NCBI GenBank assembly: GCA_910579155.1
Contig: CAJTTS010000001.1
Span: 154,469 to 218,468, forward strand
DNA from: an uncultured Oscillospiraceae bacterium
GTDB lineage: Bacteria; Bacillota_A; Clostridia; Oscillospirales; Oscillospiraceae
Direction: 5' to 3'
DNA length: 64,000 nt
Position 1 is the stretch's first letter, and the number at the start of each line of letters is the position of its first letter. Shown here in pieces: positions 9,051-50,859 of the stretch. A program made the position numbers and the translations under genes. The notes under the pieces are model-generated. The model was not told the origin of the DNA. It did no database searches and saw nothing but the letters and a program-made list of their open reading frames with translations.

Positions 9051-9072
9051 TGCATTTCCTCCTCATATGACG

Positions 9073-9102
9073 AAGGCCAGGCTGCTTTCGCAGCCCGGCC
9101 TT
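9073..9102. terminator. Intercistronic hairpin between SLH gene and adhesin
   Basis: AAGGCC-A-GGCTGC at 9073-9085 pairs with GCAGCC-C-GGCCTT with a TTTC loop and one mismatch. It is followed by a T-run on the plus strand only. For the minus-strand genes it lies in a 72-base gap inside the apparent operon and may be an attenuator or mRNA-stabilising stem. Confidence 0.5.
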
Positions 9103-9122
9103 TTTTGTGTCGGTTATATTGT

Positions 9123-10283: not shown

Positions 10284-10319
10284 GGTCTCACGCTCCTTTG
10301 CCATTTCTTTTCTGATTCG

Positions 10320-32858: not shown

Positions 32859-32867
32859 GGCGGGGAC

Positions 32868-35823: not shown

Positions 35824-36001
35824 TAATACAGGGGGCGTTTCCATGACCACATAGAAATAGCTTATCCAGCAATGATCCTTGGGTCATTTTGATTTGCCCA
35901 ATGCTCGCAAGTCATTCCCCCATATCTGCGCAACGCTGCAGAGCTATCAAATTGATCACTGCTTTGCTGGCTGGCATCCATTTCAGAGGTTGGTTCTTGT
36001 G

Positions 36002-36388
36002 CTACAAATTGGAAAGAACGTTGAATATCCCAAATGCGAGGAGCTGCCCATCATCGCCGTATACTTTTACATCAACTGCTACAGCCTTCCTTTTCCGACA
36101 CAGCACACTTCCAACCGCCCATGCCGTTCCGTTTGAAATATTATTTACAAAGCTGAAGCTGCTATTTTGTGTAGCATAAATCCGTCCGTCCAATGCAGCT
36201 GTCATTCCGGCGGTGACATCCGCCAGTCCATACATGGAACCTCCAAACATTTTTCCATCGTGATTTACCATATGTTCCGCTAATGGCATCTTCAGGCATA
36301 CAGTTTCTTTTTTTATATAGGCCAACTGAATCCCGTTTGATTTCAGGCATAAGACGTTTTCCAGTAGACCGCATATTTTTTGTTCCAC
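36002..36388 (-). CDS. PaaI-type hot-dog thioesterase
   Basis: 128 residues. A single hot-dog fold: HMVNHDGKMFGGSMYGLADV, with the N-H-x-G-x-x-x-G-G core of PaaI thioesterases, and the strand ATQNSSFSFVNNI. Hydrolyses acyl- or aryl-CoA thioesters in the cytoplasm. GTG start with AAGGAAA upstream. It lies at the outer end of the CoA cluster, downstream of the amidohydrolase, and probably recycles CoA from stalled intermediates. Confidence 0.8.
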   Translation of the reverse strand: MEQKICGLLENVLCLKSNGIQLAYIKKETVCLKMPLAEHMVNHDGKMFGGSMYGLADVTAGMTAALDGRIYATQNSSFSFVNNISNGTAWAVGSVLCRKRKAVAVDVKVYGDDGQLLAFGIFNVLSNL

Positions 36389-36404
36389 AATATTTTTCCT
36401 TTCC

Positions 36405-36522
36405 TCATTGCTGATTTTTCGGGTTCAGCAGCTTGAGGCTCTCATTCTTGGCAGTACCGTCCTCGTTGGGCTTAACAAATACCCACAGATTTCTTGTAAT
36501 GTCAAATTGAAGGTCAACCCTC
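36405..36522 (-). CDS. Very small ORF overlapping the amidohydrolase end
   Basis: 38 residues (MRVDLQFDITRNLWVFVKPN onward), with its ATG overlapping the amidohydrolase stop in a different frame. No family recognised; it fills the 110-base gap before the thioesterase gene. It could be a translated leader-like ORF or the remnant of a longer gene. Confidence 0.25.
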
Positions 36523-38172
36523 ATACACGATTTTTCCGTCAAAAATCGTGCATATATTCCGTGCCTGCTTGATTTGCTCGGGATCAAGCTCAAACAGGTT
36601 TCGACTGATCACTGCGACGTCGGCAAGCTTGCCTGCTTCCAGGGTGCCTGCCCTGTCCTCAAAACCGCTGGCAAAGGCCGCACCGATGGTGTAACCCTTC
36701 AGTACCTCTGCCAGGGTCATGGCCTGATCGGGATTGCTGCATTTCAGCTCTCCGTCCTCAAAACCCCGACGGGTAACAGCGGCATATATGGTCCGAATGG
36801 GATCAATGCGGACAACAGGGGTATCTGTTCCCACAGAAATTTTCACGCCCGCGTTAATCAAATCACGGTAGCGGGATTCCTTTCGATTCCGCTCAGGTCC
36901 GTAGAGAACCTCCCCACAGCCATTGAGCCAATCGGTAAGATGGGCGGGCTGAACGGAAGCAATGACGCCGTATTTTGCCATGCGCTGGACATCTTCATCT
37001 GTGATAATGTTCATGTGCTCTACCGCGTTGCGCATGGCGCCGTTCTTTTTCCAGGATCGCTCAAAGGCATCAATGGCCACCTTGGTCGAACGGTCACCCA
37101 GGCAATGGACCTTGACTGATAAGCCCATATTGTTGGCGCACTCTACGGCCTCACAGAACGCCTCAGGATCGGAAAGCAGGTCTCCGCTGGCAGCAGGGCG
37201 GTTGGCATAGGGCTGAAGCATCGCGCCGGTGCAGGTATCCGGCACACCGTCAAGCATAAACTTTGCACCAGCGACCCGGATCTTGTCGGTGCTGAAATAG
37301 GTTCCCAGATATTTCAGATCCACCAGCCCGGACTGGGCGGCGTGATCCTCGTTTTTGCCCAGTACGTTCGTCCCGCACCACTGATGGTAGCGGATGGTGA
37401 GCGCTCCTTGATTTTCAAGACGTTTTAGCGGCTCGATCGTATCAATCTGCACACGGGCCGGGAGAGCATTACACTCGGTAAAGCTGGTAATACCGTGCTT
37501 GTTGAGCAGGTGCATGAACTGTTCGTCCCACTGCGCTATGTCCTCGTGGTCATAAACTTCCACTATATAACGCACGGTATAGGAAAGGTTTTCGCACAGG
37601 AACCCGGTGAGCTCGCCATTCTCGTCACGGCGGGCATATTCGTCCGGCCATTCGGGATGCTGGTGGATGATGGAATCCAGATGGCACTCGTTGATGGCGG
37701 CGCTGTTCAGCCAGGCAGAGTGGCCACTGCTGCTGAGCAGATACACAGGAATGTCGGGGACTGCCGCATCCAGAGAGGCCCTTGTGGGCTCAGGCGCTCC
37801 CCGTCCCCAAGAGGTGAGGAAAAAGCATCGGCCATGAACTCGCTGGCAGTTCGGATTCTCCTCCAGGTAACGCACGACGCCGTCCACCACTTCCTGCTCG
37901 GAGCGGCAGCCCTCCAAATGTTTAATGCAGTCGCCAAACTCGCGCACCGCAGCCGTTTGATAGTGGCCATGCCCGTCAAAAAAGCCGGGCATGATAAGCT
38001 GGTTGCCGAAGTCCTTGCGCGTGGTATCCGGGCTGGCATAGGTTTCGGCTGTCTGCCGGTCTCCCACGAATATGATCCGATTACCGCGAATGACAACCGC
38101 TCCCGGGAAGGGGCGGTCCTGTACAGAATCAAAGATCGCTGTGCTGTACAAAATGAGATCCGCTTTTTCCAT
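36514..38172 (-). CDS. YtcJ-like metal-dependent amidohydrolase
   Basis: 552 residues. Metallo-dependent hydrolase with a composite beta-sandwich at the termini. Metal motif FFDGHGHYQ (H-x-H) near residue 67, VKVHCLGDRSTKVAIDAF with a metal His, AVEHMNIITDEDV, SVQPAHLTDWLN, and the C-terminal SVGTDTPVVRIDP containing the metal Asp. It hydrolyses amide or related C-N bonds; the natural substrate of this subgroup is unknown. The ATG at 38172 follows GGGAGG at a 7-base spacing. Same strand as the thioesterase and LysR genes; may release the acid that the divergent CoA genes process. Confidence 0.85.
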   Translation of the reverse strand: MEKADLILYSTAIFDSVQDRPFPGAVVIRGNRIIFVGDRQTAETYASPDTTRKDFGNQLIMPGFFDGHGHYQTAAVREFGDCIKHLEGCRSEQEVVDGVVRYLEENPNCQRVHGRCFFLTSWGRGAPEPTRASLDAAVPDIPVYLLSSSGHSAWLNSAAINECHLDSIIHQHPEWPDEYARRDENGELTGFLCENLSYTVRYIVEVYDHEDIAQWDEQFMHLLNKHGITSFTECNALPARVQIDTIEPLKRLENQGALTIRYHQWCGTNVLGKNEDHAAQSGLVDLKYLGTYFSTDKIRVAGAKFMLDGVPDTCTGAMLQPYANRPAASGDLLSDPEAFCEAVECANNMGLSVKVHCLGDRSTKVAIDAFERSWKKNGAMRNAVEHMNIITDEDVQRMAKYGVIASVQPAHLTDWLNGCGEVLYGPERNRKESRYRDLINAGVKISVGTDTPVVRIDPIRTIYAAVTRRGFEDGELKCSNPDQAMTLAEVLKGYTIGAAFASGFEDRAGTLEAGKLADVAVISRNLFELDPEQIKQARNICTIFDGKIVYEG

Positions 38173-38392
38173 GAATAAACCTCCCACTATTTTTGATGTG
38201 CTGAGAGCTTCATTGGACCCGGCCGAGTTCAATTTGTGCTGATCTGCTGCTTTTTAACGGTCAGACTGTCTGCTCTGTCGTATCGTCATTATAGTTTTAT
38301 TCTGAAACAAAGTAAAATTGTAAATTCGACTCTTAGTTATAAAGAATCTTTGTATTTTTCCGGAGAGCCTTGGTCCGGAATTTTCCATCAAA

Positions 38393-38428
38393 AAAGCGGC
38401 GGACTGCCTGTGGGCAGTCCGCCGCTTT
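38393..38428 (-). terminator. Strong terminator of the LysR gene
   Basis: Perfect 16-bp inverted repeat AAAGCGGCGGACTGCC/GGCAGTCCGCCGCTTT with a TGTG loop, followed on the minus strand by TTTTTT. It lies 17 bases after the lysR stop and separates it from the amidohydrolase operon. Confidence 0.9.
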
Positions 38429-38444
38429 CATTGCTCACCAGCTC

Positions 38445-39329
38445 TTAAGCCAAGATATTGATGCCTTCGATTTTGCAAAGATTGTCGATCAAGGTTTGGC
38501 GGATGATCTCAAAATAGTCCATCCGCACAGGCATTTGACTGATTAGTACAAGCCGCCTGGGGGGTGGTTCACTGTCAACCGGGCAAACCATAAAGCCGTC
38601 AGGAAACTTGTCCAAATACGAAACGGGGATCAGCGCCCACGCATCCTGATCAATAAACAGCATGACCGGGTCTTCTATTCCCGTGGCGGAGACCAGTGGT
38701 TTCCCTTTACCGCCAAAGTAATGCTTTTGCCAGGTACGGCCCTCGTTGCTGAATACGATGAAAACCTGCTTTTCCACATTTAAGCTGCCGATTCGCTGTG
38801 TGCCATGATATTTGGAATCTTTACGGCAAACAAAAACCATTTTTTCGTCTGCAAGCGGTAAAATCTGCACTTTGTCAAAGGTAAGCAGCTCACACACAAG
38901 GGCGCAGTCAATCCGGCCGTGCTCCACCTCATTGTACGCATCCAGTGTGTTCTTTCCGGCCAGCAGGATCTCACACTCCGGCTTTACCTGCCGCAATTTC
39001 CGAAAAATCTGGGGCAGCAATCTGCGGCACATACTGGGTGCACAGGAAAAATGATACTGCTCCGCGCCGCCCAACTCCATCAGATCCTCGGTTTCCTGCC
39101 AGATGCGCAGCCATTTTTCGGCCTGCGGCAGAAAAACCCTTCCCTCCGGCGTCAAGGTCAGGTAATGGATTCCCTTCCCCCGGATGATTAGCTGCTTGCC
39201 CAGCTCTTTCTCCAGAGAGGTGATTTGCCAGCTGATTGTGGGCTGCGTGGTAAAGGTTCGCTCCGCCGCCTGCGTGAAGGTGCCATATTTGCAGACTGCG
39301 AGGAACGCCTCGATTTGCTGAATTTTCAT
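38445..39329 (-). CDS. LysR-type transcriptional regulator
   Basis: 294 residues. The N-terminal winged HTH (IEAFLAVCKYGTFTQAAERT followed by TQPTISWQITSLEKELGKQL) is followed by a LysR substrate-binding domain (about 90-290; LLPQIFRKLRQVKPECEILL, IDCALVCELL). Divergent from the CoA-transferase operon with overlapping promoters in between, so it is the obvious regulator of that pathway, responding to a pathway metabolite. Confidence 0.9.
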   Translation of the reverse strand: MKIQQIEAFLAVCKYGTFTQAAERTFTTQPTISWQITSLEKELGKQLIIRGKGIHYLTLTPEGRVFLPQAEKWLRIWQETEDLMELGGAEQYHFSCAPSMCRRLLPQIFRKLRQVKPECEILLAGKNTLDAYNEVEHGRIDCALVCELLTFDKVQILPLADEKMVFVCRKDSKYHGTQRIGSLNVEKQVFIVFSNEGRTWQKHYFGGKGKPLVSATGIEDPVMLFIDQDAWALIPVSYLDKFPDGFMVCPVDSEPPPRRLVLISQMPVRMDYFEIIRQTLIDNLCKIEGINILA

Positions 39330-39479
39330 TGCTCACCGTCCCATTTCTGCATCGGATGGTCAAAGCAGGCTTTCCCCCAAATGACTGAATCATGCAAAAA
39401 AATTGATTTTTGTTAATATCTGTAAGGTGAATGTTGAAAAGCATAAGCTTTCCTCAAAATGAAATACAAGATTTCTTTT

Positions 39480-39530
39480 ATTATAGCACCAAATTTTCAA
39501 TTTTACAATAGCCATCAGTAGAAATATACT
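39480..39530. promoter_or_regulatory. Overlapping divergent promoters of lysR and the CoA operon
   Basis: Minus strand: -35 TTGTAA (39503-39508), 17-base spacer, -10 TATAAT (39480-39485), reading toward lysR. Plus strand: -35 TTTACA (39502-39507), 17-base spacer, -10 TATACT (39525-39530), reading toward the CoA-transferase. The two -35 boxes share almost the same bases, so one bound LysR dimer could control both. Confidence 0.8.
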
Positions 39531-39606
39531 AAGCATCAAGCAGAGAAGTAGATGAAATTGGTGAAAATCCAAAACCCCATCCAATCTAGTTGAGGAGGAC
39601 ATATTC

Positions 39607-40782
39607 ATGAAGAAATTCCTGCAAGGCATCAAGGTCATTGGCTTTGAGACAGCTGGCGCTGGCCCTACCACATCAAAGCTGCTGGCTGAGTACGGCGCGG
39701 ATGTGATCATGATCGAGCCTATTAACGGCGTGAACACCCGCGGTCAGATCAATTTCGACTTTTACTTCCTGCACAAAAAGAGCATCGCCGTAAACATGAA
39801 GACCCCGGAAGGGCTGGAGATCGTGGATAAGCTCCTGTCCACGGCGGACGTGTTCGTCAGCAACTACCGTAAACGGGCCATCGACAAGTTCGGACTGGAC
39901 TATGAGACGCTCCACGCCAAATACCCCCGCCTGATCCACGCAACGCTGACCGGCTACGGTGAGAACGGCCCCATGAAAGATGCGCCTGGGTTCGACACCA
40001 CCGCCTATTGGGGCCGGGGCGGCCTGGCCAAGTCCGTCCGGGAGAGGGACGGCTCCCCTATCGTCACCCCCAGCGCCATCGGTGACATTGGCAGCGGAAC
40101 CATGCTGTGTGGCGGCGTGCTGGGCGCACTGTTCCACCGTGAGCGCACCGGCGAGGCCATGAAGGTCTATATCTCTCTGTACAGCGCCGCCATTTTCCAG
40201 AACAATGAGCAGATGTTTCAGGCTCAATACGGGTTAAACTACCCCCTTTCCCGCCTGACGCCCCGCCGGGCCTATGCCAACACCTATCTGCTGAAGGACG
40301 GCTACTTCCATTTCCACACCCTGGACCCTGACCGGGATATGCCCAAGATCATGCACATCATCGGACGGGATGAGCTGATAGACGATCCCAGCTTCAAGGG
40401 CCACTGGAAGGATTCTGGGGACAAGGCGCTGGAAATCCGGGAAATCATGGACGCGGGTTTCACCCGGCTGACGGTTGCCGAGGCCAAAGCTGCTTTCAAG
40501 GAACAGGATATCGCGTTTGGCGAGATCTGCGGTCCTGATGACGTGCTCAAGGACCCCCAGGCAGAGACCAATCAGCTGCTCTCTCACCACAAGCTGCTCA
40601 ACGGCACCGAGGCGGTCTATGCAAACTCTCCTATCAAGTACATGGACGATGCCCCCTGCGAGGACGGCCCCGCCCCCCGGCTGGGCGAGCATACGGTGGA
40701 GCTGCTCAGGGAATGCGGCTACAGTGACGAGCAGATCGCCGCGTTCTGTACAAATAATGTGGTCTACGCGGAGAACATGTGA
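39607..40782 (+). CDS. Class III CoA-transferase (CaiB/BaiF family), first copy
   Basis: 391 residues, full length. Class III landmarks: IGFETAGAGPTTSKLLAEYG at the start, KKSIAVNMKTPEGLEIVDKL, DVFVSNYRKRAIDKFGLDY, YGENGPMKDAPGFD, and SAIGDIGSGTMLCGGVLGAL with the catalytic Asp. Transfers CoA between carboxylic acids without ATP. GAGGAGGAC precedes the ATG. First gene of the plus-strand operon, followed after 3 bases by the aldo/keto reductase. The acid substrate is unknown. Confidence 0.9.
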   Translation: MKKFLQGIKVIGFETAGAGPTTSKLLAEYGADVIMIEPINGVNTRGQINFDFYFLHKKSIAVNMKTPEGLEIVDKLLSTADVFVSNYRKRAIDKFGLDYETLHAKYPRLIHATLTGYGENGPMKDAPGFDTTAYWGRGGLAKSVRERDGSPIVTPSAIGDIGSGTMLCGGVLGALFHRERTGEAMKVYISLYSAAIFQNNEQMFQAQYGLNYPLSRLTPRRAYANTYLLKDGYFHFHTLDPDRDMPKIMHIIGRDELIDDPSFKGHWKDSGDKALEIREIMDAGFTRLTVAEAKAAFKEQDIAFGEICGPDDVLKDPQAETNQLLSHHKLLNGTEAVYANSPIKYMDDAPCEDGPAPRLGEHTVELLRECGYSDEQIAAFCTNNVVYAENM

Positions 40783-40785
40783 GCC

Positions 40786-41634
40786 ATGGAAACTGTAATG
40801 CTAAACAATGGCGTACAGATGCCGGTGATTGGCTTCGGAACGTTTCAAATCCCGGATTTGGTTCAGTGTGAGCAATGTGTGCTGGACGCCGTTGAGATTG
40901 GCTACCGCTCGATAGACACCGCCGCCCATTATCACAACGAGGAGGCGGTGGGTAGGGCGGTCAAGAAGTGCGGCCTTCCCCGTGAAGAACTGTTCATTAC
41001 CAGCAAACTGATGGTGTGCGATGCCGGTTATGACCGCACCATGAAGGCGTTTGCGCGCACCATGAAAAAGCTGGGACTTGATTATCTCGACCTATATTTG
41101 ATCCACCACGCCTACGGAGACTGCTACGGCTCCTGGCGGGCCATGGAGGAACTTTATCGGAACGGGGATATCCGGGCCATCGGCGTATCCAACTTTGAAC
41201 CCTATCGTTTTGTAGATCTGGCCCTCAACAATGACATCATCCCTATGGTGGATCAGACGGAAACCCACCCCTTCTTCCACCAGAACGCGCTGAAAAAAAC
41301 GCTGGCGGAGTACAATGTTCCGCTGATTGCTTCCGAACCCATGGCGCAGGGCAAAAATGGCTTGTTTACGCACCCGGAGCTGGAAAGAATCGGAGAGAAA
41401 TACGGAAAGTCCGTGGCCCAGGTCATTCTGCGCTGGCATTATCAGCGGGGAGATATCATCATTCCGAAGTCGGTGCATAAAAGCCGTATGCTGGAGAATT
41501 TCTCCATCTTTGACTTTTCGCTTGATGAGGGGGATTTGGCTGTCTTTGACCGAATGGACCAAAACCACGGCCTGTTCGGCGACCGGCGCGACCCAGAACG
41601 GGTGAAGCTGTTTTGCAGCATGAAATCAGAATAA
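40786..41634 (+). CDS. Aldo/keto reductase
   Basis: 282 residues. The AKR tetrad is intact: Asp in YRSIDTAAHYHNE, Tyr in the same segment (AHYHNE), Lys in LFITSKLMV and His in LYLIHHAYG. The NADP(H)-binding C-terminal IIIPKSVHKSRMLENF is present. Reduces a ketone or aldehyde with NAD(P)H, or the reverse. It sits 3 bases after the CoA-transferase, which is unusual company for an AKR and suggests a keto or hydroxy group on the pathway's substrate. Confidence 0.9.
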   Translation: METVMLNNGVQMPVIGFGTFQIPDLVQCEQCVLDAVEIGYRSIDTAAHYHNEEAVGRAVKKCGLPREELFITSKLMVCDAGYDRTMKAFARTMKKLGLDYLDLYLIHHAYGDCYGSWRAMEELYRNGDIRAIGVSNFEPYRFVDLALNNDIIPMVDQTETHPFFHQNALKKTLAEYNVPLIASEPMAQGKNGLFTHPELERIGEKYGKSVAQVILRWHYQRGDIIIPKSVHKSRMLENFSIFDFSLDEGDLAVFDRMDQNHGLFGDRRDPERVKLFCSMKSE

Positions 41635-41651
41635 CACAGGGGGCATACGGA

Positions 41652-42542
41652 ATGTTTGAAAACCTGATTGGAACAGGGCTGGGCTGGCAGCGGCTGGAGT
41701 ACAACTGGAGAGACAGCGCACTGTACGCTTTGGCGGTGGGTGCGGATGAGACCGATTTGCTATACACCTATGAGCGGGATATGAAAGCTATCCCTTCCTT
41801 TGTGGCGACTCCCTATTACAATGCCGTCAACATAGAGCCTAAGCAGCCCCGTCCCTATCCCGTCAACTACCTTATTGCCGATGAACTGTCCAAGCGGCTT
41901 GGGCGCCCCATCAATATGGGCTTCCATATGGGGTTTCAAATCGAAATGAGGCGTCCTGTGGATCCGATCAAGGGCACTCTGCTCAGCAAAAGCTGGCTGG
42001 ATAAGTTCTATGACCGCGGGGCCGGGAAAGGGCTGGACCTGGAGGTCAAAAACGAAATATACGATGAAGCTGGCAGGCTGCTGGCCGTCAATACCTCCTA
42101 TCATCGGATGAAGGGGGAGGGTGTGGACGGATTCGGCGGAGAACCGCCGGTAAAAAAGGTGGTGGAGTTCCCGGACCGTTCCCCGGACCAGGTGGTGAAC
42201 TCTTACATCAGCAAAACGCAGAATGTTTTGTACCGCCTCACCGGTGACACCAATCTGACGCACATTGACCCTGAGCAGGCAATGAAAGCCACCGGGCACG
42301 GTGTGTTTATGCAGGGCCTGTCTTCGCTGGGATTTGCCACCCGCATGATGATCAAGGCCATGATTCCCGGAGAGCCGGAGCGGATGAAGCGCATCTATGT
42401 CCAGATGAGGAGCATGGCCTTTCCTGATACCCCCGTTCAGATTCAAGCCTGGAAAATTGGCGATGGACAAGCCGTCTTCCGCTACCTCGATCAAAACACA
42501 GGAAAGGCCATTTTAGACAACTGCGAGTTTGAATGGGAATAA
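41652..42542 (+). CDS. MaoC-family (hydratase-2 type) enoyl-CoA hydratase, first copy
   Basis: 296 residues, a double hot-dog protein. The N-terminal half (YNWRDSALYALAVGA) and C-terminal half with the hydratase-2 motif GDTNLTHIDPEQA, holding the catalytic Asp and His, resemble peroxisomal hydratase 2. Adds or removes water across a 2-enoyl-CoA (R-specific). The start at 41652 follows AGGGGG; an in-frame ATG at 41613 lies inside the AKR gene. Paired with a related hydratase two genes downstream. Confidence 0.9.
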   Translation: MFENLIGTGLGWQRLEYNWRDSALYALAVGADETDLLYTYERDMKAIPSFVATPYYNAVNIEPKQPRPYPVNYLIADELSKRLGRPINMGFHMGFQIEMRRPVDPIKGTLLSKSWLDKFYDRGAGKGLDLEVKNEIYDEAGRLLAVNTSYHRMKGEGVDGFGGEPPVKKVVEFPDRSPDQVVNSYISKTQNVLYRLTGDTNLTHIDPEQAMKATGHGVFMQGLSSLGFATRMMIKAMIPGEPERMKRIYVQMRSMAFPDTPVQIQAWKIGDGQAVFRYLDQNTGKAILDNCEFEWE

Positions 42543-42673
42543 GCCGTCTAAAAAAGCTCTGCCGGGGATAAGGAAGGGGATTCTCAGCCTTTGTGAAGGG
42601 AAGTGATAGCAGCCACAGTTCAGCCGTCTGCAAGTCTATCAATCACAAACGAAAAAGATAGGAGATATGCCTT

Positions 42674-43898
42674 ATGAAACCGCTGCAGGGGATCCGCGTG
42701 CTTGATTTCACCCAGTTTATGGCCGGGCCTATGGCTACCATGCTGCTGAGCGACTTGGGCGCCGAGGTGATCAAGTTTGAAAACGCTTCCACCGGCGGGG
42801 ACAGCACCCGATACGGCAAGTACATCAAGGACGGCGCGTCCAGCCATTATGCCACCCGCAACCGCGGCAAAAAGAGTGTCGCCATCAATATGAAAGACCC
42901 CGCCCAGCGGGACCTATTCCTAAAACTGGTCAAAACCGCCGATGTGGTCATTGAGAATTACAAACCCGGCACCATGGAGAAATTTGGCGTTACCTATAAG
43001 GTCATGGAGGAAATCAATCCCAGGATTACCTATGTCCGTATCTCCGGTTATGGGCAGGAAGGGGCCCTACGCCGATCACGCCGCCTTTGACGCCACAATC
43101 CAGGCGGAAGCGGGCGTCATGAGCATCACCGGCCCGGAGGGCAGCAGCGGCTATAAATGCGGCGCCTCTATCGGCGATTACTCCGGCGCTCTCATGGGCT
43201 GCATTTCCGCCCTCACCGGCGTGTTGGACGCCCAGCGCACCGGCCATGGCCGCTGCATCGACGTAAGCATGATGGACGCGCTGATTTTCCTCCAGGAAAA
43301 CCAGCTCAGCGTCTATAAGGTTACTGGAAAAATGCCTCAGCCTGCGGGCAACCGCTATCCGGCCTCCAGCCCCATCGGGGATTTCATGTGTAAGGATGGA
43401 ATTCCCATTATGCTGAACATCTCCACAGACAAACAGTGGGCGGATTTTGCCAAGGTACTGGGACAGCCCCAATGGCTGGAGAATCCCTTGTTCGAGTCTA
43501 TGAGCAAGCGGGCGGAGAACTTCCGCGCGGTGGAGGCTGAGGTCAACCGGGTATTCGCGGAAATGACCAGTGATGAGGTGGCAGAAAAGCTCCAGAGCGT
43601 CCAATCTGTATATGGACGCATCAATAACTACGAGACCTTGGTTAACCACCCTCAGGTGGCCTTTCGCAAAACCTTCGTCAATGCCAACTACGCAAACGGC
43701 ATCCATTACAGCGTCCCGGGCAATCCCCTGCTGGTGAGCGGCATGGAGCGGGAGATGGAGTATCCCACCGCCAAGCTGGGGGAACATACTTTTGAAATCC
43801 TGGGCGAGGTGTGCGACGCAAAGACCCTCCACGAGATTATGGACCCCGTTCAGAAGAAGGCGGAAGACAAGGCCGCCGAGCTGTATGCCAAAAGCTGA
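42674..43898 (+). pseudogene. Class III CoA-transferase, second copy, one-base frameshift
   Basis: Full-length CaiB/BaiF protein in two frames. The first frame runs GIRVLDFTQFMAGPMATMLL to VRISGYGQEG. An extra G in the GGGG run at about 43060 shifts reading. The second frame resumes exactly in register of the family with PYADHAAFDATIQAEAGVMS, CGASIGDYSGALMG (catalytic Asp) and on to the C-terminus. Everything else is intact, so this is either a very recent mutation or an assembly error in a homopolymer. AGGAG lies 9 bases before the ATG. Confidence 0.85.
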
Positions 43899-43931
43899 AC
43901 CAAAACACAATACAGAAAAGGAGCGATAGAG

Positions 43932-44858
43932 ATGGCTGATTTTCAAGGCGTTAAAATGTCTCCTGATATGTTTGAGCATCTGATCGGCGCTTCTACCGGC
44001 ATCCGCAACATGGATTACACCTGGCGCGACATTGCGTTGTATAATCTGAGCATCGGCTGCAAACGGGAAGACTCCCCCTACTTTTTCGAGCGGGATGTCC
44101 GAGGGCTGAAAGCGTTTCCCAGCTTTGCGGTGATTCCGTACCTCAACAATGTGACCATGCGCATCATCACCCCGGAGCCGGACGGGACCAATGAGATCTA
44201 CCGTGACCACCTAAAAAGTCTCCTGGGGACCATGCCAAACGGTCTGCATATGGCCATGGAGATGCATTTCGACGTCCCCCTGGACCCCTATGGCGGCACC
44301 TTTGTGGTAAAGGACCACCTGAACAACATCCTGGATCGGGGCGAGGGCAAGGGCACGGTAGCCGACTGCGGCATGGACGTGTGGGACCAGGCGGGGCGGC
44401 ACATTGCGGAGCTGCACAGTTATCACCTGAGCAAGGCTTTCGGCGGTTTTGGCGGTCCGGAGTTCAAGGCTCCCAAGGTAGTCTATCCCGACCGGCCACC
44501 CGATGTGGAAAAGACAGAATACATGATTCCCGAGATTGCCGCGTTCTATCGCCTGGTCGGCGATACCTACCGGGTCCATGTGGATTTTGAGTACGCCAAA
44601 AGCTGCGGCTACCCTGCCCCCTTCAATATGGGTATGTGTACCTATGGGTACGGAGTGCGAATGATTGCCCATGAACTGATCCCCTATGAACCGGAACGCA
44701 TCACCTACCTGTATGCACAGGTACGCAGCCTGTGCTTCCCCGGGCAGAACGTCACTGCCCAGGCGTGGCAGGCAGAGCCTGGCGTTATGTACTGGAAGCT
44801 GCTGAACCAGGAGGGCAACGTGCTGATTGGCAACGGCATTATGAAATATAAAATCTGA
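43932..44858 (+). CDS. MaoC-family hydratase, second copy, altered active-site motif
   Basis: 308 residues, a double hot-dog protein related to the hydratase at 41652 (both have a YxWRDxALYxLxxG opening). The C-terminal motif reads GDTYRVHVDFEYAKSCG: the catalytic Asp and His are kept, but the Asn between them is Tyr, so substrate geometry or activity may differ. AAAGGAG precedes the ATG. Two unequal MaoC proteins in one operon could form a heteromer, as known for some steroid side-chain hydratases, or act on successive intermediates. Confidence 0.85.
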   Translation: MADFQGVKMSPDMFEHLIGASTGIRNMDYTWRDIALYNLSIGCKREDSPYFFERDVRGLKAFPSFAVIPYLNNVTMRIITPEPDGTNEIYRDHLKSLLGTMPNGLHMAMEMHFDVPLDPYGGTFVVKDHLNNILDRGEGKGTVADCGMDVWDQAGRHIAELHSYHLSKAFGGFGGPEFKAPKVVYPDRPPDVEKTEYMIPEIAAFYRLVGDTYRVHVDFEYAKSCGYPAPFNMGMCTYGYGVRMIAHELIPYEPERITYLYAQVRSLCFPGQNVTAQAWQAEPGVMYWKLLNQEGNVLIGNGIMKYKI

Positions 44859-44885
44859 CACAGATGAGAAAAGGAGGAATCCGGC

Positions 44886-45854
44886 ATGGCATTCCCAAAT
44901 CTATCCGGCTATTTCGTCATCCGGTGCGGCTCCCGGCTCGCTCCAGACGCCCGCGAGTTTTTGGTGCCCACCGGTCCCCGCACCAAGGAATACCTTGCGC
45001 AATACAACCGGGAGTGCGAGGAGTGGATTGAAAAGCTGACCCAGGATGACCCGCACCCCGATGTCAAGCGCTTCACCATGGAGTACAAAAATGGAGATTA
45101 CATTGGCCGCGCTTTGGTCTACCGTCCCAATACGGACGAGAAGGACCTCCCCATGGTGATGTACACCCATGGTGGATCCTTTGCCTTCTGGACGCCCGAG
45201 TACAAGGACGTGTTTTGCTCCAACATTGCCCACCAGGGTAACTGCGTAGTGGTAAACCTTGACTTCCGCCAGAACCTGGACGGCGTGCTCATCCCCGATA
45301 TGTTCGAGGACGCCTATGAGGGAATGCTCGAGGCCGCACGGCAGGCGGAGCGTTTCGGCGCCGACCCCACACGGGTGGCGACCATGGGCGACTCCGCAGG
45401 CGGTCAGATGGCGCTGGGTATTCCACTGATGTTCCGGGACCGCGGCACCTTGAAAATCTCTCACCGCGTCATTTTTGCCGGCGGCATCGGGTTTGACCCC
45501 AACGACCCCAGCAACGGCAACGTGAACGCCTCGAAAACCGACCTGATGGGGGCCCAGAATGTAATGAAGCGGGGCTTTGAGAAAATGGAGGACTGCACCA
45601 ATATCTACTGGTCCCCCATCTACGATTCTCAGATGGAGAACTCTCCGTCCACCACGTTTATTGTAGGCACCGCTGACTATATGTGGCGTGAGCAGTCCAT
45701 TTACGCCCGGAAACTCATTGAGGCCGGGGTAGAGGCGGAGGTTTGCCTGTACCCTGATATGCCCCACGACTTTTACGGAGGCGGCAGTGAGGCGGCCCGG
45801 GATGCCTGGGTCTACGCAGGCGAGCGCATCCGCAAATATTTGGGAAAGAGATAG
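44886..45854 (+). CDS. HSL-family alpha/beta hydrolase (esterase)
   Basis: 322 residues. The oxyanion motif is YTHGGSFAFWTPE (HGG), the nucleophile is in TMGDSAGGQMALG (GDSAGG), the acid is in FIVGTADYMW and the His in MPHDFYGG, so the triad is complete. Hormone-sensitive-lipase family enzymes cleave short or bulky esters. AGGAGG lies upstream. In this operon it may release the acid from an ester before CoA transfer, or cleave a thioester or lactone. Confidence 0.88.
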   Translation: MAFPNLSGYFVIRCGSRLAPDAREFLVPTGPRTKEYLAQYNRECEEWIEKLTQDDPHPDVKRFTMEYKNGDYIGRALVYRPNTDEKDLPMVMYTHGGSFAFWTPEYKDVFCSNIAHQGNCVVVNLDFRQNLDGVLIPDMFEDAYEGMLEAARQAERFGADPTRVATMGDSAGGQMALGIPLMFRDRGTLKISHRVIFAGGIGFDPNDPSNGNVNASKTDLMGAQNVMKRGFEKMEDCTNIYWSPIYDSQMENSPSTTFIVGTADYMWREQSIYARKLIEAGVEAEVCLYPDMPHDFYGGGSEAARDAWVYAGERIRKYLGKR

Positions 45855-45920
45855 TGCCCCGCCTAAAATCAACATTTTGATTCGCGCCAGACAAAAAAGA
45901 AAAGGGAAAGGAGCCTATTT

Positions 45921-47131
45921 ATGAATCAAAAAGAGGTTTCCAAGGGAAAATTAATCAGCGTCGTCATCGGCTGCTTCATGCTGATGGTGAGTTCCTCCGT
46001 GGTGTCCAACTCTCAGGGCTATTTTCTGACTCCTGTGCGTGAGTTTCTAGGCTGTACTGCCGCCCAGTTCTCACTGTACTACAGCTTTGTCCAAATCTGT
46101 ACCGTCATCACCTCTCTGTGCATTGGCATCATCATGGCCAAGGTGCCCCGCCGGATTATGCTGGGCGTGGGCGCCATCGGAACGGCGCCGGCTTTGTCAT
46201 CCTGTCGCAGACCCAGGCGCTGTGGATGGTATATGCAGGCGCCATCTGTGTTGGTTTCTTCCAAGCTTTGATCGTGGTCCCTGTGGTCCAGATTTTGAAC
46301 TCCTGGATGCCCGGCGGAAGCGGTGTGGCCATGGGCTTTGTGATGTCCGCCACCGGCTTTGGCGGTATCATCATGGCTCAGGTCATGCCCCGGCTGGTCG
46401 AGCACATCGATTGGCGCACCGGTTATCTGTTCTGTGCAGTCATGTTTATTGTATGCACCGCCATTGGTATCATCCTGGCCGGAGAGAAATCTCCCTATGA
46501 GCTGGCCCAGGCGGCGAAGCCCAAAAAGAAGGGCGGCTTTGCTTTGGTGGCAAAGGACCCCATGTTCTGGGTTTTTATCATCTGCTGCTTTGTTGGCAAC
46601 GGCGCTTCCAATATCGACCAGCATCTGACTCCCATCATGCAGACTATCAGCTTTGACACAGCGATGGTAGCGAATGCCATGACTCTGTTTAATATCAGCC
46701 TGCTGATTTTCAAGATTTCCGAGGGCTGGATGTATCAGAAGGCCTCTGGCAAGCGTTTTGTGCTGATTTATTCCGTCGTGAGCATTTTCGGCTACCTAGC
46801 CCTTCAGCTTGCCGGCCCCGCGTTCTACTTCAGCATCATCATGAAAGCATTTGCCAGTGCCGGTATTACTGTTGTGTTTTCTCTGGTGTGCAACGAGTAT
46901 TTTGGGACCGAGTTCGGCGGCGCGGTCTGGGGCTTTTCCTGGGCCTCCTTCCAGTTCGGTGCGACCGTATTCTCCCCGATTTACGGCGCCTGCCTTGACC
47001 GATTCGGCAACTACAATTACGCAACCTATATCGGCGCCGTATCCATTCTCGTGATTGGCGGGCTGTTCTACTATATGCTTTCCCACAAGCGCCAGGTGGA
47101 GCAGATTGAACAGGCGGAGACACAGGAATAA
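45921..47131 (+). pseudogene. MFS transporter (OFA/BaiG-like), one-base frameshift
   Basis: Twelve-helix MFS carrier of about 403 residues in two frames. Frame one covers the first three helices (ISVVIGCFMLMVSSSVVSNS, IIMAKVPRRIMLGVGAIG). A missing base near 46184 moves reading to the second frame (GAGFVILSQTQALWMVYAG, WMPGGSGVAMGFVMSATGFG, then to the C-terminus). No other damage is seen. It resembles oxalate/formate-antiporter-like carriers used for carboxylate uptake in bile-acid and similar operons; the substrate is inferred only from context. AAAGGAG precedes the ATG. Confidence 0.8.
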
Positions 47132-47180
47132 ACGACTATATTTTCAACTGTCCTGCGACAGCGGAAATCAGGAGGTTCTT

Positions 47181-48368
47181 ATGGTACATTATGTATTAGC
47201 GACTGAGGAGCAAAAGGAATTTGGCAAAGGAGCCCGCCAAATCGTCGATAAAATGCTGAAACCCCGCATTGAGGAGTACGAAACTGCGGACGGCGGCCTT
47301 GGCATTTATCCGCGGGAAGTACATGATCAACTGGCGGCGGCAGGCTACTACGCCGTCACCGTCCCGGAGGAGTACGGCGGACTGGGCATGGATTCCGTGG
47401 CCGAAGCCATCATCCTGGAGCAGCTCGGCGAGGTGGACGGCGGCTTTGCGTTTGCCTTTGCCTCAGCCTATGCCCAGTGGCCGAATATCCTTAAAACCCA
47501 TATGACAGATGAGGAAAAACAGGCATGGATCGACAAGGTGCTGGCAGGCTCCATCGGCTGCTTTGGGCTGACGGAGGCAAACGCGGGTTCCGACCCGGCG
47601 GCCATGCGCACCACCGCCGTCTATGACGAGGCTGCGGATGAGTGGGTCATCAACGGTTCTAAATGCTTTTGCTCCGGCGGCCCCAATGCGGACTATTTCG
47701 TTGTAATGGCGTGGACTGACAAGACTCAGCGCCCCAGCAGAGGCATCACCGCGTTTTTTATTGAGAAGGAGCGGGGTGTGCAGATCAGCAAAAAGGAAAA
47801 CAAAATGGGTCTCCACTTGTCTGAGACCGCTGAGATCATCCTGGAGGATCTGCGTGTCCCGGCCAGCCATGTGATTGGCGAAGTTAACCAGGGCTTCGGC
47901 GCGGCACTGACCACCCTGAAGGCCACTTCCGCCATCTGTAACTGCTGCCCGGTGTTGGGCACGGCCCAGGCCGCATTGGATGAGGCGATTGAGTACGCCA
48001 AGACCCGCCGCCAGTTCGGAAAGCGTATTATCGACCACCAGGGCGTGGGCTTCATGCTGGCGGATATGAGCATGAAGGTGGCCGCCTCCCGGGCCGTGCT
48101 GTACCAGTTCCTTCAGGCGGTGGACCAGAACGCAGACGACCAGAACCTGGCCCTGATGATTAAATGCTATGTCACTGACCGGTGCTTTGAGGTTTGTAAC
48201 GATGCGATTCAGGTTCTGGGCGGCTATGGTTATATGCACGACTATCCGGTGGAACGCTATATGCGCAATGCCCGTATTTTCCAGATTTTTGGCGGCACCA
48301 ACCAAATCAAGCGCAAGAATCTGGCAAAGGCAATTGCGGGCCGCGATCCCCAAGCGATAAAGAAGTAA
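47181..48368 (+). CDS. Acyl-CoA dehydrogenase
   Basis: 395 residues, the usual length. FAD contacts CFGLTEANAGSDPAAM and WVINGSKCFCSGG, substrate region GLHLSETAEIILEDLRVP, YAKTRRQFGKRI, and C-terminal QVLGGYGYMHDYPVERYMRN then IFQIFGGTNQIKR. The C-terminal IYEGT glutamate of MCAD-type enzymes is Gly here (IFGGT), so the catalytic Glu, if any, must come from another helix as in isovaleryl- or long-chain enzymes. Acts on the acyl chain as dehydrogenase or, in anaerobes, as enoyl-CoA reductase. No etfAB genes nearby. AGGAGG 6 bases before the ATG. Confidence 0.9.
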   Translation: MVHYVLATEEQKEFGKGARQIVDKMLKPRIEEYETADGGLGIYPREVHDQLAAAGYYAVTVPEEYGGLGMDSVAEAIILEQLGEVDGGFAFAFASAYAQWPNILKTHMTDEEKQAWIDKVLAGSIGCFGLTEANAGSDPAAMRTTAVYDEAADEWVINGSKCFCSGGPNADYFVVMAWTDKTQRPSRGITAFFIEKERGVQISKKENKMGLHLSETAEIILEDLRVPASHVIGEVNQGFGAALTTLKATSAICNCCPVLGTAQAALDEAIEYAKTRRQFGKRIIDHQGVGFMLADMSMKVAASRAVLYQFLQAVDQNADDQNLALMIKCYVTDRCFEVCNDAIQVLGGYGYMHDYPVERYMRNARIFQIFGGTNQIKRKNLAKAIAGRDPQAIKK

Positions 48369-48462
48369 CGGAACAGTTATACATGGCGGGGAAGGTCATT
48401 TAGCACACGGCTTGGCCGGCCCCGCCACGGTGTATATAACAGCGGGAAAGGAGGGCTGCCTG

Positions 48463-49731
48463 ATGCCCGCATCCAGCACGATTGCGCTTATCATCATGGT
48501 CATCACCATTGTCCTATACGCGACGGAAAAAATCCCGCTGGCAGTCACAGCGCTCCTGTCCATGCTGGCCATGGCATATACCGGATGTATCTCGTATTCT
48601 GAAGCGTTCTCGGGCTTCTCCAATACAGCGACGCTGATGATTGTCGGCGCTGGAATCATCAGCGAGGCGGTATTCACTACTGGACTGGCAGATCGGATTG
48701 GACAGTTCATCATGAGCATGGACCGACTGACGGAAAAGCGATTTGTTCTGGCCGCAGTCGTTATCAGCGCTCTGTTGTCCGCCGTAATCAACGCAATGAT
48801 CGTGATGGCGCTTTTTATGCCGATCATCAGCGCAACTTCTGATAAAACGGAAGGCCGTATTACGCGCAAGAACACTTATTTGCCAATCGCGATTGCGGCC
48901 GTGTTCGGCGGAAATCTTGCCGTGATTGGCTCATCCTCTATGCTGAACGCCTCCGCAATGCTGGGCCAGAGCTATTATGGACGGCCCCTTGATTTTTTCC
49001 AGCCTCTGCCCTTAGCGCTCCCCGGCGTGGCCGTGTGCTTTATTATGTTCGGCTTGACCGGCTGCCGCTTGCAGGAAAAAATCTTTGATTTTCCTGTAAC
49101 AAGGGAAGCTGTTTTGCCAGAAAATAAAAAACCGGAGGAGAGCCCGGTTTGGAAGCAGGTGTTTGTCGTTGTAGATCTGGCGGTATGCATCATCGCCTTT
49201 ATCATGGGTGGGAATTTCGGAGCTGTTGCCCTGACCGGCGGATGCCTGGCCATTGTGAGCGGCTGTATCAAAATGGACGAGGCAATCCGAGGTGTCAACT
49301 GGAATACTGTGCTTATTCTTGTGGGCACCTTGGGTTTTGCCAAAGGTGTGGAATCCAGTGGAGCTGGTCAAGTAATTGCGGATGTCATGTTGGATGTTTG
49401 TGGACCGCTAGGCCGCTCACCTTACGCAATGTGCGTGGTAATGCTGGTCCTGGGCACGGTCATCTCCAATTTTATGTCCAACAACGCAACCGTTGGCATT
49501 CTGGTTCCGGTAGCCCTGTCCCTATGCACCGTTATGGAGATTGATCCGGCAAACTATGTGCTGGCTTGCGCCATTGGTGCCAATCTTTCTGTTATGACGC
49601 CTATCTGCACGGCAACCATCACCATGACGGCAGCTGCAGGCTATCGGTTCAAAGATTATGTCCGATTTGGCGGACTATTCAATGTACTCGCTCTCATTGC
49701 CACAGCTCTGGTGATGCGGCTTTGCTTTTAA
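48463..49731 (+). CDS. SLC13/DASS-type carboxylate permease
   Basis: 422 residues with about 11-12 hydrophobic helices and the repeated SNN-type motifs of the ion-transporter fold: LPIAIAAVFGGNLAVIGSSS in the first half, and VISNFMSNNATVGILVPVAL with GANLSVMTPICTATITM in the second. SLC13-like permeases import di- and tricarboxylates with Na+ or H+. The ATG at 48463 follows AAAGGAGG. Last gene of the CoA operon, likely a second uptake or exchange route for the substrate or product. Confidence 0.85.
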   Translation: MPASSTIALIIMVITIVLYATEKIPLAVTALLSMLAMAYTGCISYSEAFSGFSNTATLMIVGAGIISEAVFTTGLADRIGQFIMSMDRLTEKRFVLAAVVISALLSAVINAMIVMALFMPIISATSDKTEGRITRKNTYLPIAIAAVFGGNLAVIGSSSMLNASAMLGQSYYGRPLDFFQPLPLALPGVAVCFIMFGLTGCRLQEKIFDFPVTREAVLPENKKPEESPVWKQVFVVVDLAVCIIAFIMGGNFGAVALTGGCLAIVSGCIKMDEAIRGVNWNTVLILVGTLGFAKGVESSGAGQVIADVMLDVCGPLGRSPYAMCVVMLVLGTVISNFMSNNATVGILVPVALSLCTVMEIDPANYVLACAIGANLSVMTPICTATITMTAAAGYRFKDYVRFGGLFNVLALIATALVMRLCF

Positions 49732-49734
49732 TTA

Positions 49735-50515
49735 GAAACGGTTATCATTCCAGATTTTGTTTTTGTGGTGCCATGCGCTGTATTGGTCTCAGCTGAATGC
49801 TCAAACAAATAATCTTGGCAAATCTTGATCTGCGTGAAATTAGTCGCGTGCCATGGGCTTTTGAGCGGCAATGGCAATGGGCGGTTGGGAAACCGGCCGC
49901 ACGATCAATGCCTAGAAGTTGCGTCGCTGGCACGGGAGATTTACAACCTGCACTTCTCCCACGTTGAGCATAACGCGGAAAAAAGCGGCTCACCCTCGGC
50001 AGCGTCCTGGCGCTGATCCTTTGGTTTTTCTTTCCCTGATGAGCAGGTCGCGCCGGAGGAGCTCCTTCGGCGCGGCAAGGTGGGGCAAATCCTTTTACAG
50101 ATACGCATTGATGTTGCCGGCCAACTCGGGCACATTACACCTCTTGATAACGCTGCAAAATATTGATAAACGCCTATATCTGCTATCCACCCAGACTAAA
50201 CGGGCCGAATAGACCATTCCTTTTCAAAGTGCATTCAGACAGAGCGTCTATATTGAATTCTTGCAAAGAGCCTTTAATGGACTGAGGTGGAGACGGTGGC
50301 TTCAATCGTTGTCACCGCTCTCGTTTATAACAACCTGTTACTTATTCTGAAAAATGTCATAATAATCGTTTTCAAAATGAGCGTTTCAATCTCTTTTATC
50401 ACTCTAAGCAGCCTAGGCATCAACGTAGCTCTCTACCGGCTCGAAGTACTCAGAGTGCATCAATAAAACTCAAGTATAGAATATTTTTATCGAAAACTTT
50501 CTGCCATATAGTCGG
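49735..50515. other. Region without a recognisable gene
   Basis: Short ORFs only. One plus-strand frame around 49900-50170 (LAREIYNLHFSHVEHNAEKS, a TGA, then QVAPEELLRRGKVGQILLQI) looks like a decayed coding sequence, but no family was recognised. From 50220 to 50510 the sequence is AT-rich and non-coding. Confidence 0.4.
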
Positions 50516-50517
50516 CA

Positions 50518-50553
50518 TGGGCTTGGATAAACAGTTGTCTAAGCCCACTTTTT
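50518..50553 (+). terminator. Terminator-like hairpin
   Basis: GGGCTT and AAGCCC flank an AT-rich loop and are followed by ACTTTTTT. No active gene ends here; it may be the end of the decayed sequence or an IS-associated stem. Confidence 0.45.
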
Positions 50554-50859
50554 TATCAGAAATTATTTCGAGCTTTTCCTTGGGTTTTCAATGCTTTCCT
50601 AATCCTATTTCTGATAAAAATAAATTTTTAATTACACGCGCTCCCATTGTTCTTTTGTCAATTCATACCGTTTCATGTCCTTATTTTTGCACATCTGACT
50701 TCTTTGTGCAATATTTAATTTTCAAACATCAGTTCAACAATCAAGAAAAAATATGGTCTGAGCCCGGTCAAACGGGGTTCATTTTAACCGGGCATACCTA
50801 CCCGAGTTCTGGGATGGCGGTATGCGCGCAGCGTGAATGCCATCTCTCGTCCTGGAAAC

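What the first reader, a model, noticed from the sequence alone, without database searches (positions are those of the whole stretch)
36002..49731. Candidate undescribed CoA-thioester pathway island
A LysR-controlled divergent locus combines two class III CoA-transferases, an aldo/keto reductase, two unequal MaoC hydratases, an HSL esterase, an MFS carrier, an acyl-CoA dehydrogenase, an SLC13 permease, a YtcJ-like amidohydrolase and a PaaI thioesterase. Family knowledge: cai and bai operons and the phenyllactate (fld) route use the same logic of CoA transfer, dehydration and enoyl reduction. This gene set matches none of them: there is no crotonase, CoA ligase, BaiE, radical dehydratase, thiolase or etfAB. 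Inference: an amide- or ester-linked acid is released, the keto group reduced, CoA loaded by exchange with product, water removed by MaoC and the chain reduced by the ACAD.
Basis: partly seen in the sequence, partly recalled or inferred. Interest (0 to 1): 0.85.

Follow-up and report, generated by a model that had tools for sequence, protein, structure and literature searches.

The report
Uncharacterised gut CoA-transferase pathway operon
A bacterium related to gut and rumen microbes carries a gene cluster that probably loads an unknown acid onto coenzyme A, removes water and reduces it, much as bacteria process carnitine but with different enzymes.

Summary
The island is real: 12 genes at 36002-49731, a LysR gene divergent from nine + strand genes. 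I found no described pathway with this gene set. Parts of it recur in Lachnospiraceae/Oscillospiraceae MAGs. The best relative, L055, has divergent LysR, SLC13, GntP permease, CaiB1, CaiB2, MaoC, the same ACAD type, SLC13, EtfB, EtfA and a second ACAD.

New: the ACAD lacks the canonical catalytic Glu (Gly371, FGG for YEG). Of 11 related ACADs, 7 have Gly, 2 Ser and 2 Asp there. Reduction is not excluded, since butyrobetainyl-CoA dehydrogenase is SGG (PMC8360864), but decarboxylation or elimination is possible.

Best reading: a CoA-recycling, carnitine-like or bbu-like pathway for an unknown acid. New variant of a known kind.

The parts
36002..36388 (-). PaaI-like hotdog thioesterase (weak family match)
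   Evidence: Pfam 4HBT 21.0 bits vs 20.6; TIGR00369 35.2 vs 36.6; PaaI-like neighbour seen only in L049, 34%
36514..38175 (-). YtcJ-like amidohydrolase (Amidohydro_3)
   Evidence: Pfam 266.5 bits; no counterpart in 22 relative loci
38445..39329 (-). LysR-family regulator, divergent from the operon
   Evidence: Pfam; 44% relative between MaoC2 and MaoC1 in L001; LysR divergent from the core in L055
39502..39530 (+). candidate sigma-70-like promoter TTTACA-17-TATACT
   Evidence: consensus scan: 16 promoter-like sites in the region against 12.9 (sd 3.7) in shuffles, so only its position is suggestive
39607..40782 (+). class III CoA-transferase CaiB1
   Evidence: Pfam 250.5 bits; D160, the likely nucleophile, invariant in the window protein and 30 relatives
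40786..41634 (+). aldo/keto reductase, DkgA-like
   Evidence: Pfam 145.1 bits; best NCBIfam DkgA 230.2 vs cut-off 425; motifs holding the D/Y/K/H tetrad present (tetrad recalled)
41613..42542 (+). MaoC1, double-hotdog hydratase/dehydratase, GDTN..H motif (listed TTG start; true start may be downstream)
   Evidence: Pfam; 79% relative in L001; motif
42674..43898 (+). class III CoA-transferase CaiB2, frame broken near 43053-43064
   Evidence: ORFs 42674-43090 and 42942-43898 match successive parts of CoA_transf_3; relatives read it in one frame; likely nucleophile Asp kept
43932..44858 (+). MaoC2, double-hotdog, variant GDTY..H motif
   Evidence: Pfam; Tyr213 in 27 of 28 closest relatives; AF2 mean pLDDT 93.1; best fold matches are hydratase-2/MaoC structures
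44886..45854 (+). HSL-family esterase
   Evidence: Pfam Abhydrolase_3 124 bits; HGGS, S170, D264 and H294 invariant in 17 aligned proteins, the window's included; partial P0257 left out
45921..47131 (+). MFS carrier, frame broken within 46118-46271
   Evidence: ORFs 45921-46271 and 46118-47131 match successive parts of MFS_1; the first piece is below the cut-off (20.5 vs 33.4)
47181..48368 (+). acyl-CoA dehydrogenase without the canonical catalytic Glu (Gly371, IFGGT)
   Evidence: Pfam domains; aligned with IYEGT of 4l1f and CarC 6fah; comparison with relatives
48412..49731 (+). SLC13/CitMHS-type permease
   Evidence: Pfam CitMHS 189 bits, Na_sulph_symp 71.4 bits; 37-41% relatives near MaoC or CaiB genes in L003, L036, L055
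50518..50547 (+). candidate terminator, 13-pair stem then T run
   Evidence: consensus scan: 22 terminator-like sites against 16.8 (sd 4.8) in shuffles

Best explanation
A LysR-linked operon for CoA-dependent processing of an imported organic acid, working like anaerobic carnitine (cai) and gamma-butyrobetaine (bbu) metabolism. SLC13 and/or MFS carriers move substrate and product. The HSL esterase frees an acid and the AKR interconverts a carbonyl and a hydroxy group. CaiB1 and CaiB2, perhaps as one hetero-oligomer, exchange CoA between product acyl-CoA and fresh substrate, so no ATP is spent. A MaoC protein removes water from the 3-hydroxyacyl-CoA. The Glu-less ACAD, with ETF encoded elsewhere, reduces the enoyl-CoA. 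Shown: gene content, kept catalytic residues in CaiB, MaoC, HSL and AKR, loss of the ACAD Glu, recurrence of parts of the set, ETF genes near this ACAD type in two relatives. Inferred: co-transcription, regulation, direction and order of steps, substrate, heteromeric CaiB, and that the window's own genome encodes ETF.
For: L055 carries LysR, SLC13 41%, GntP permease, CaiB1 40%, CaiB2 59%, MaoC 42%, ACAD 57%, SLC13 34%, EtfB, EtfA and an ACAD 36%. L005 has CaiB2 74% then MaoC2 75% in the window's order; L001 has MaoC2 83%, LysR 44% and MaoC1 79%. L037 has ACAD, CaiB2, CaiB1 and AKR; L050 has LysR, MaoC1, CaiB1, ACAD and AKR relatives. Homologues of CaiB1, MaoC2 and HSL share listed contig lengths in nine pairwise cases at seven lengths, one (15187) common to all three; 0 of 20,000 jittered sets reached nine, maximum five. 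The butyrobetainyl-CoA dehydrogenase branch is also Glu-less (SGG), from passages of PMC8360864. In bbu two class III CoA-transferases, 30% identical, are both needed, from passages of PMC8364193. Tight spacing and AGGAG sites.
Against: No substrate evidence. L055 has a second, Glu-bearing ACAD close to the acryloyl-CoA reductase model (540.7 vs cut-off 640) that could be the true reductase there. L049 puts MaoC1 and a Gly-type ACAD beside a thiolase; L050 has a crotonase and an AMP-ligase, which fits oxidation as well. Two window genes are frame-broken. AKR, HSL and MFS vary among relatives; the amidohydrolase is not shared. No relative fetched shows the whole window set in order.
Confidence: 0.45

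Rival explanations
1. The Glu-less ACAD is not an ordinary dehydrogenase or reductase: it removes an alpha-carboxylate, as proposed for benzylmalonyl-CoA dehydrogenase IaaF (GGG), or a leaving group, as sulfinopropionyl-CoA desulfinase does (AGG). MaoC then hydrates the enoyl-CoA; SLC13 imports the doubly charged acid.
For: Gly371 and no acid in the aligned helix-G segment of the window protein; IaaF and desulfinase precedents in PMC8360864 passages; CitMHS-type permeases near MaoC or CaiB in L003, L036 and L055; a separate Glu-bearing ACAD with EtfBA in L055.
Against: Butyrobetainyl-CoA (SGG) and pimeloyl-CoA (YGG) dehydrogenases are also Glu-less. The desulfinase model scores 226.2 vs cut-off 600. 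Relatives L029 and L050 have Asp at the site, and L048 (Ser) has two Glu in the helix-G segment, so some may keep a base. IaaF itself was not compared.
Confidence: 0.25
2. Oxidative use: CaiB activates the acid, the ACAD dehydrogenates, MaoC hydrates and the AKR oxidises; a thiolase elsewhere finishes a partial beta-oxidation.
For: L049 puts MaoC1 and a Gly-type ACAD beside a thiolase, an MmgE/PrpD protein and an acetyl-CoA hydrolase/transferase; L050 adds crotonase and AMP-ligase; L028 a crotonase.
Against: No thiolase or ligase among the island's genes; the missing Glu is the residue that abstracts the C-2 proton (PMC8360864).
Confidence: 0.2
3. A decaying island: breaks in CaiB2 and MFS mean that the pathway no longer works in this strain.
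For: Frame breaks; transposase pieces on both sides.
Against: One break per gene with open reading on both sides; a ligA-like gene and a sugar MFS gene in the same window are interrupted too, which fits assembly error; homologues 99-100% identical to CaiB1, MaoC2 and HSL exist in other assemblies.
Confidence: 0.1

Closest known systems
bbu cluster, gamma-butyrobetaine to trimethylamine (Emergencia timonensis; PMC8364193, passages seen)
   Same: Two dissimilar class III CoA-transferases, an ACAD-family flavoenzyme, a transporter and a thioesterase
   Different: bbu has a ferredoxin and a betaine/carnitine/choline transporter, and its six genes include no MaoC, AKR or HSL. Bbu sequences were not compared
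cai operon, anaerobic carnitine reduction (gene content recalled; SGG motif of butyrobetainyl-CoA DH from PMC8360864)
   Same: CoA-transferase, hydratase/dehydratase, Glu-less ACAD, ETF partner (near it in two relatives), transporter
   Different: MaoC double-hotdog proteins instead of a crotonase; two CaiBs; no ligase; L-carnitine CoA-transferase model 101.7 vs 413 and crotonobetainyl-CoA dehydrogenase model 152.9 vs 540
iaa operon, indoleacetate degradation (IaaF, PMC8360864 passages; IaaL named in PMC11659651)
   Same: Class III CoA-transferase and a Glu-less ACAD
   Different: IaaF motif is GGG, the window's FGG; sequences not compared
Caffeate reduction (CarC) and fld phenyllactate route (pathways recalled)
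   Same: CoA exchange with product, then enoyl reduction by ACAD/ETF
   Different: CarC (6fah) keeps the Glu that the window ACAD lacks; fld uses a radical dehydratase (recalled)
Acryloyl-CoA reductase AcrC (NCBIfam NF042972)
   Same: Best-scoring curated ACAD model
   Different: 311.5 bits against a cut-off of 640

Membership tests
cai (carnitine) operon | CaiB and CaiA equivalogs | tested here: not met
   L-carnitine CoA-transferase 101.7 vs 413 (CaiB1) and 59.8 vs 413 (second piece of CaiB2); crotonobetainyl-CoA dehydrogenase 152.9 vs 540
cai (carnitine) operon | crotonase-type hydratase (recalled) | tested here: not met
   No crotonase among the island's genes; MaoC instead
cai (carnitine) operon | ACAD without the YEG glutamate | tested here: met
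   FGG at the site; butyrobetainyl-CoA DH listed as SGG in PMC8360864
bbu cluster | two class III CoA-transferases with an ACAD-family gene | tested here: met
   bbu content from PMC8364193
bbu cluster | ferredoxin gene | tested here: not met
   No CxxCxxCxxxC motif in six frames of 35800-51300
bbu cluster | betaine/carnitine/choline transporter | tested here: not met
   Carriers are MFS and CitMHS/Na_sulph_symp
bbu cluster | orthology to BbuA, BbuB, BbuC | not tested
   No Bbu sequences at hand
Class III CoA-transferases | CoA_transf_3 domain and catalytic Asp | tested here: met
   250.5 bits (CaiB1), 176.3 and 189.8 bits (CaiB2 pieces); aligned Asp in both
Hydratase-2/MaoC double-hotdog enzymes | fold and Asp/His pair | tested here: met
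   MaoC2 model matches 3kh8, 3khp, 1s9c; D211 and H216 kept in 115 of 115 relatives counted; MaoC1 motif by sequence only
Hydratase-2/MaoC double-hotdog enzymes | Asn of the GDxN..H motif (motif recalled) | tested here: inconclusive
   MaoC1 has Asn; MaoC2 has Tyr213, as do 27 of its 28 closest relatives
Canonical acyl-CoA dehydrogenases | catalytic Glu of the YEG motif | tested here: not met
   Gly371
bai, fld | BaiE; radical dehydratase (recalled) | tested here: not met
   Neither is among the Pfam assignments of the island's genes

The most novel reading that the evidence does not exclude
A branch of gut and rumen Clostridia ACADs has lost the catalytic Glu and, with a pair of class III CoA-transferases and MaoC hydratases, carries out a decarboxylating or leaving-group-eliminating reaction on a dietary or host-derived acid: a chemistry that I found assigned to no gut operon in the searches made.
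Probability: 0.25. Interest if true: 0.65.

Novelty: new variant of a known kind. Interest (0 to 1): 0.45.

Why it matters
CoA-transferase pathways in gut anaerobes decide the fate of dietary and host acids such as carnitine and gamma-butyrobetaine. This is a recurring, unassigned module with a definable core and an unusual ACAD, so a small set of enzyme assays could assign a substrate to a group of uncultured genomes.

Tried and rejected
Plasmid searches: no DNA match for the operon or for window 1-25000; CaiB1 as protein matched 1202 records, each with its best place under 60% identity.

Prevalence searches: MaoC2 at E<=1e-40 in 4 of 200 family genomes of G001 (G001 itself included); at E<=1e-60 in 1 of 391 class genomes of G004 (G004 itself). 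ACAD at E<=1e-125 in 5 of 117 relatives of G001 (G001 included); at E<=1e-120 in 3 of 397 family genomes (G001 included) and 0 of 382 class genomes of G004 (no positive rang, so uninformative). CaiB1 at E<=1e-95 in 0 of 398 phylum genomes (no positive rang, uninformative). No whole genome is held for the window and I did not identify its species.

Composite transposon: not supported; the IS-bearing flanks share no DNA similarity. A mesaconyl-CoA-type route was considered: CaiB1 scores 53.5 vs 725 and the second CaiB2 piece 28.5 vs 725 for 2-methylfumaryl-CoA isomerase, and 119.1 and 98 vs 700 for succinyl-CoA:mesaconate CoA-transferase.

Papers: CaiB, MaoC, gut bacteria, gene cluster and acyl-CoA dehydrogenase together gave 0 papers. 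Class III CoA-transferase, MaoC, gene cluster, anaerobic (three of four) gave 36, of which 15 were listed and I saw titles and abstract starts. UBA3863 gave 0. Other searches. The library holds open-licence papers only.

Limits: the contig-length test used a null of my own (lengths multiplied by 0.8-1.25), the first 70 of 120 listed rows for MaoC2 and for CaiB1 and all 17 for HSL; equal lengths suggest but do not prove one contig. The ACAD set came from loci fetched through MaoC, CaiB or the ACAD, so it is not a random sample; L055 and L056 were not in its tree. NCBIfam was run on 10 of the 14 island ORF pieces (not on the first CaiB2 piece, the two MFS pieces or SLC13). Some relatives' neighbours were named by eye from their N-termini, not by a family search (marked in the full report). 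The 22 loci include overlapping or same-contig pairs (L002/L036, L039/L051). The structure model could not be inspected residue by residue.

Full report
Observation. The island at 36002-49731 is as described. Pfam finds a weak PaaI-like hotdog protein, an Amidohydro_3 protein and a LysR regulator on the minus strand. On the plus strand come CoA_transf_3, Aldo_ket_red, MaoC, CoA_transf_3, MaoC, Abhydrolase_3, MFS, acyl-CoA dehydrogenase and CitMHS/Na_sulph_symp genes. Spacing in the plus-strand run goes from a 22-base overlap to 131 bases, with AGGAG before CaiB2, MaoC2, HSL, MFS and ACAD. A promoter-like site lies at 39502-39530 and a terminator-like stem at 50518-50547. The region has 16 promoter-like and 22 terminator-like sites against shuffled means of 12.9 (sd 3.7) and 16.8 (sd 4.8), so these are weak evidence. 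Co-transcription is inferred.

CaiB2 is split between ORFs 42674-43090 and 42942-43898; relatives cover both parts in one frame, the second from window position 43053. The MFS gene is split between 45921-46271 and 46118-47131. A ligA-like gene near 33100 also appears frame-broken and a sugar MFS gene is interrupted by an in-frame stop at 55513-55515. Assembly error is therefore likely but not shown. IS4/5-type transposase pieces lie on both sides and a Mutator-type piece on the right; the flanks share no DNA similarity.

Families and residues. No listed NCBIfam model reaches its cut-off for the ten proteins scanned (for LysR the best 25 of 47 were shown). The best ACAD model is acryloyl-CoA reductase, 311.5 against 640. 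D160 of CaiB1 is invariant in the window protein and 30 relatives, and the aligned Asp is present in CaiB2. MaoC2 keeps D211 and H216 in 115 of 115 relatives counted, but the Asn of the usual GDxN..H motif (recalled) is Tyr213 in 27 of its 28 closest relatives (the other has Phe); MaoC1 keeps Asn. The MaoC2 model (mean pLDDT 93.1) matches MaoC/hydratase-2 structures 3kh8, 3khp and 1s9c best. HGGS, S170, D264 and H294 of HSL are invariant in 17 aligned proteins. The motifs holding the AKR tetrad are present (tetrad recalled).

The ACAD. phmmer alignments put the window's IFGGT opposite IYEGT of an Acidaminococcus-type ACAD (4l1f; organism recalled) and of CarC (6fah). In 15 ACADs (the window's and 14 from fetched loci), 9 lack Glu: Gly in 6, Ser in 1, Asp in 2. 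The 6 with Glu are 33.8-47.0% identical to the window protein, the other 8 relatives 48.9-74.0%; the split between the nine and the six has support 1.000 in the FastTree tree. L055 (57%) has Ser and L056 (50%) Gly; they were not in that tree. So of 11 related ACADs 7 have Gly, 2 Ser and 2 Asp. In the aligned helix-G segment, where isovaleryl-CoA dehydrogenase has its base (place recalled), the window protein has no acid, nor do L040, L038, L051, L037 and L049, but L048 has two Glu and L029 and L050 have acids. PMC8360864 (passages) says that the Glu is missing in isovaleryl-CoA (GAG, another Glu takes over), sulfinopropionyl-CoA (AGG), butyrobetainyl-CoA (SGG), pimeloyl-CoA (YGG) and benzylmalonyl-CoA (GGG) enzymes, proposes direct decarboxylation for the last, and lists an Asp variant (GDG) for cyclohexanecarboxyl-CoA. 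PMC11659651 (one section and passages) also names enzymes with Gly or Ala there.

Relatives. MaoC2 relatives of 75-83% lie in five loci of MAGs titled Lachnospiraceae or Oscillospiraceae, one title naming roe deer rumen. L001 has MaoC2, LysR and MaoC1 together; L005 has CaiB2 then MaoC2 in the window's order. L003 has SLC13 after MaoC2; L036 has SLC13, CaiB1, an HSL-like gene (25%) and MaoC2. L037, L038, L040 and the contig of L039/L051 combine CaiB2 with a Gly-type ACAD. Their neighbours include sigma-54 regulators (L037, L038, Pfam), DUF6282 (L037, Pfam) and a HIBADH-like reductase (L037, NCBIfam); SDR, MmgE/PrpD, HIBADH and DUF6282 genes in L038-L040 and L051 were judged by eye from similar N-termini. 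L050 combines LysR, MaoC1, CaiB1, ACAD and AKR relatives with a crotonase, an AMP-ligase and alpha/beta-hydrolases; L049 puts MaoC1 and ACAD beside a thiolase, MmgE/PrpD and an acetyl-CoA hydrolase/transferase.

The best relative is L055: divergent LysR, SLC13 41%, GntP permease, CaiB1 40%, CaiB2 59%, MaoC 42%, ACAD 57%, SLC13 34%, EtfB, EtfA and a second, Glu-bearing ACAD (36%) close to acryloyl-CoA reductase (540.7 vs 640). L056 has EtfA, EtfB, LysR, MaoC1, ACAD and CaiB1. ETF-domain genes were found in 7 of 7 relative genomes searched; L055's and L056's genomes were not among these. No fetched relative shows the whole window set in order.

Counts. Of the 11 loci with a related ACAD, a CaiB gene is in the fetched neighbourhood or on the same fetched contig in 9 (not L048, L049) and a MaoC gene in 6 (window, L029, L049, L050, L055, L056). 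Several loci were fetched because of CaiB or MaoC, which inflates this. Of the five fetched only through the ACAD (L048, L049, L050, L055, L056), three have CaiB and four have CaiB or MaoC. The amidohydrolase has no counterpart in 22 loci (tblastn E<=1e-8) and none in L055 or L056; a PaaI-like gene was seen only in L049 (34%). Homologues of CaiB1, MaoC2 and HSL share listed contig lengths in nine pairwise cases at seven lengths, one (15187) common to all three; 0 of 20,000 jittered sets reached nine.

Mechanism. The core supported by L055 is LysR, SLC13, CaiB1, CaiB2, MaoC and the Glu-less ACAD, with ETF. The logic most like it is CoA exchange, dehydration and reduction as in carnitine metabolism (recalled), with a CaiB pair as in bbu, where BbuB and BbuC (30% identical) are both needed (PMC8364193, passages). 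HSL and AKR are additions that suggest an ester-bound keto or hydroxy acid. A decarboxylating or eliminating ACAD and an oxidative direction are live rivals. The substrate is unknown.

Novelty. No paper that the searches listed (most seen as titles and abstract starts) describes this gene set. I rate it a new variant of CoA-transferase-fed acid metabolism, not a new kind of system.

Noticed in passing
window 32846-34152 and 54880-56364: A ligA-like gene appears frame-broken, and a sugar MFS gene (MFS_2) is interrupted by an in-frame stop at 55513-55515; both fit assembly errors.
   Followed up: partly
window 35027-35777 and 51269-52325: IS4/5-type transposase pieces on both sides of the island and a Mutator-type piece on the right; the two sides do not resemble each other.
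   Followed up: yes
window 3312-10304: A 1912-residue protein with 15 SpaA prealbumin-fold stretches (3312-9050), next to an SLH-domain protein (9123-10304).
   Followed up: no
G001 (Lachnospiraceae MAG UBA3863): L001, L028, L029, L030, L036: This 2.4 Mb genome has seven MaoC2-like matches at E<=1e-20, several beside CaiB, SDR or permease genes: an apparent expansion of CoA-pathway islands.
   Followed up: partly
L002, L037 (Pfam); L033, L039 (by eye): DUF6282 genes of unknown function sit near CaiB2 or MaoC2 relatives, often with HIBADH-like reductases, suggesting a role in CoA-linked acid metabolism.
   Followed up: partly
L033 15892-17820: A BaiCD-like flavoenzyme gene (521.7 bits, cut-off 825) directly follows a MaoC2 relative.
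   Followed up: no
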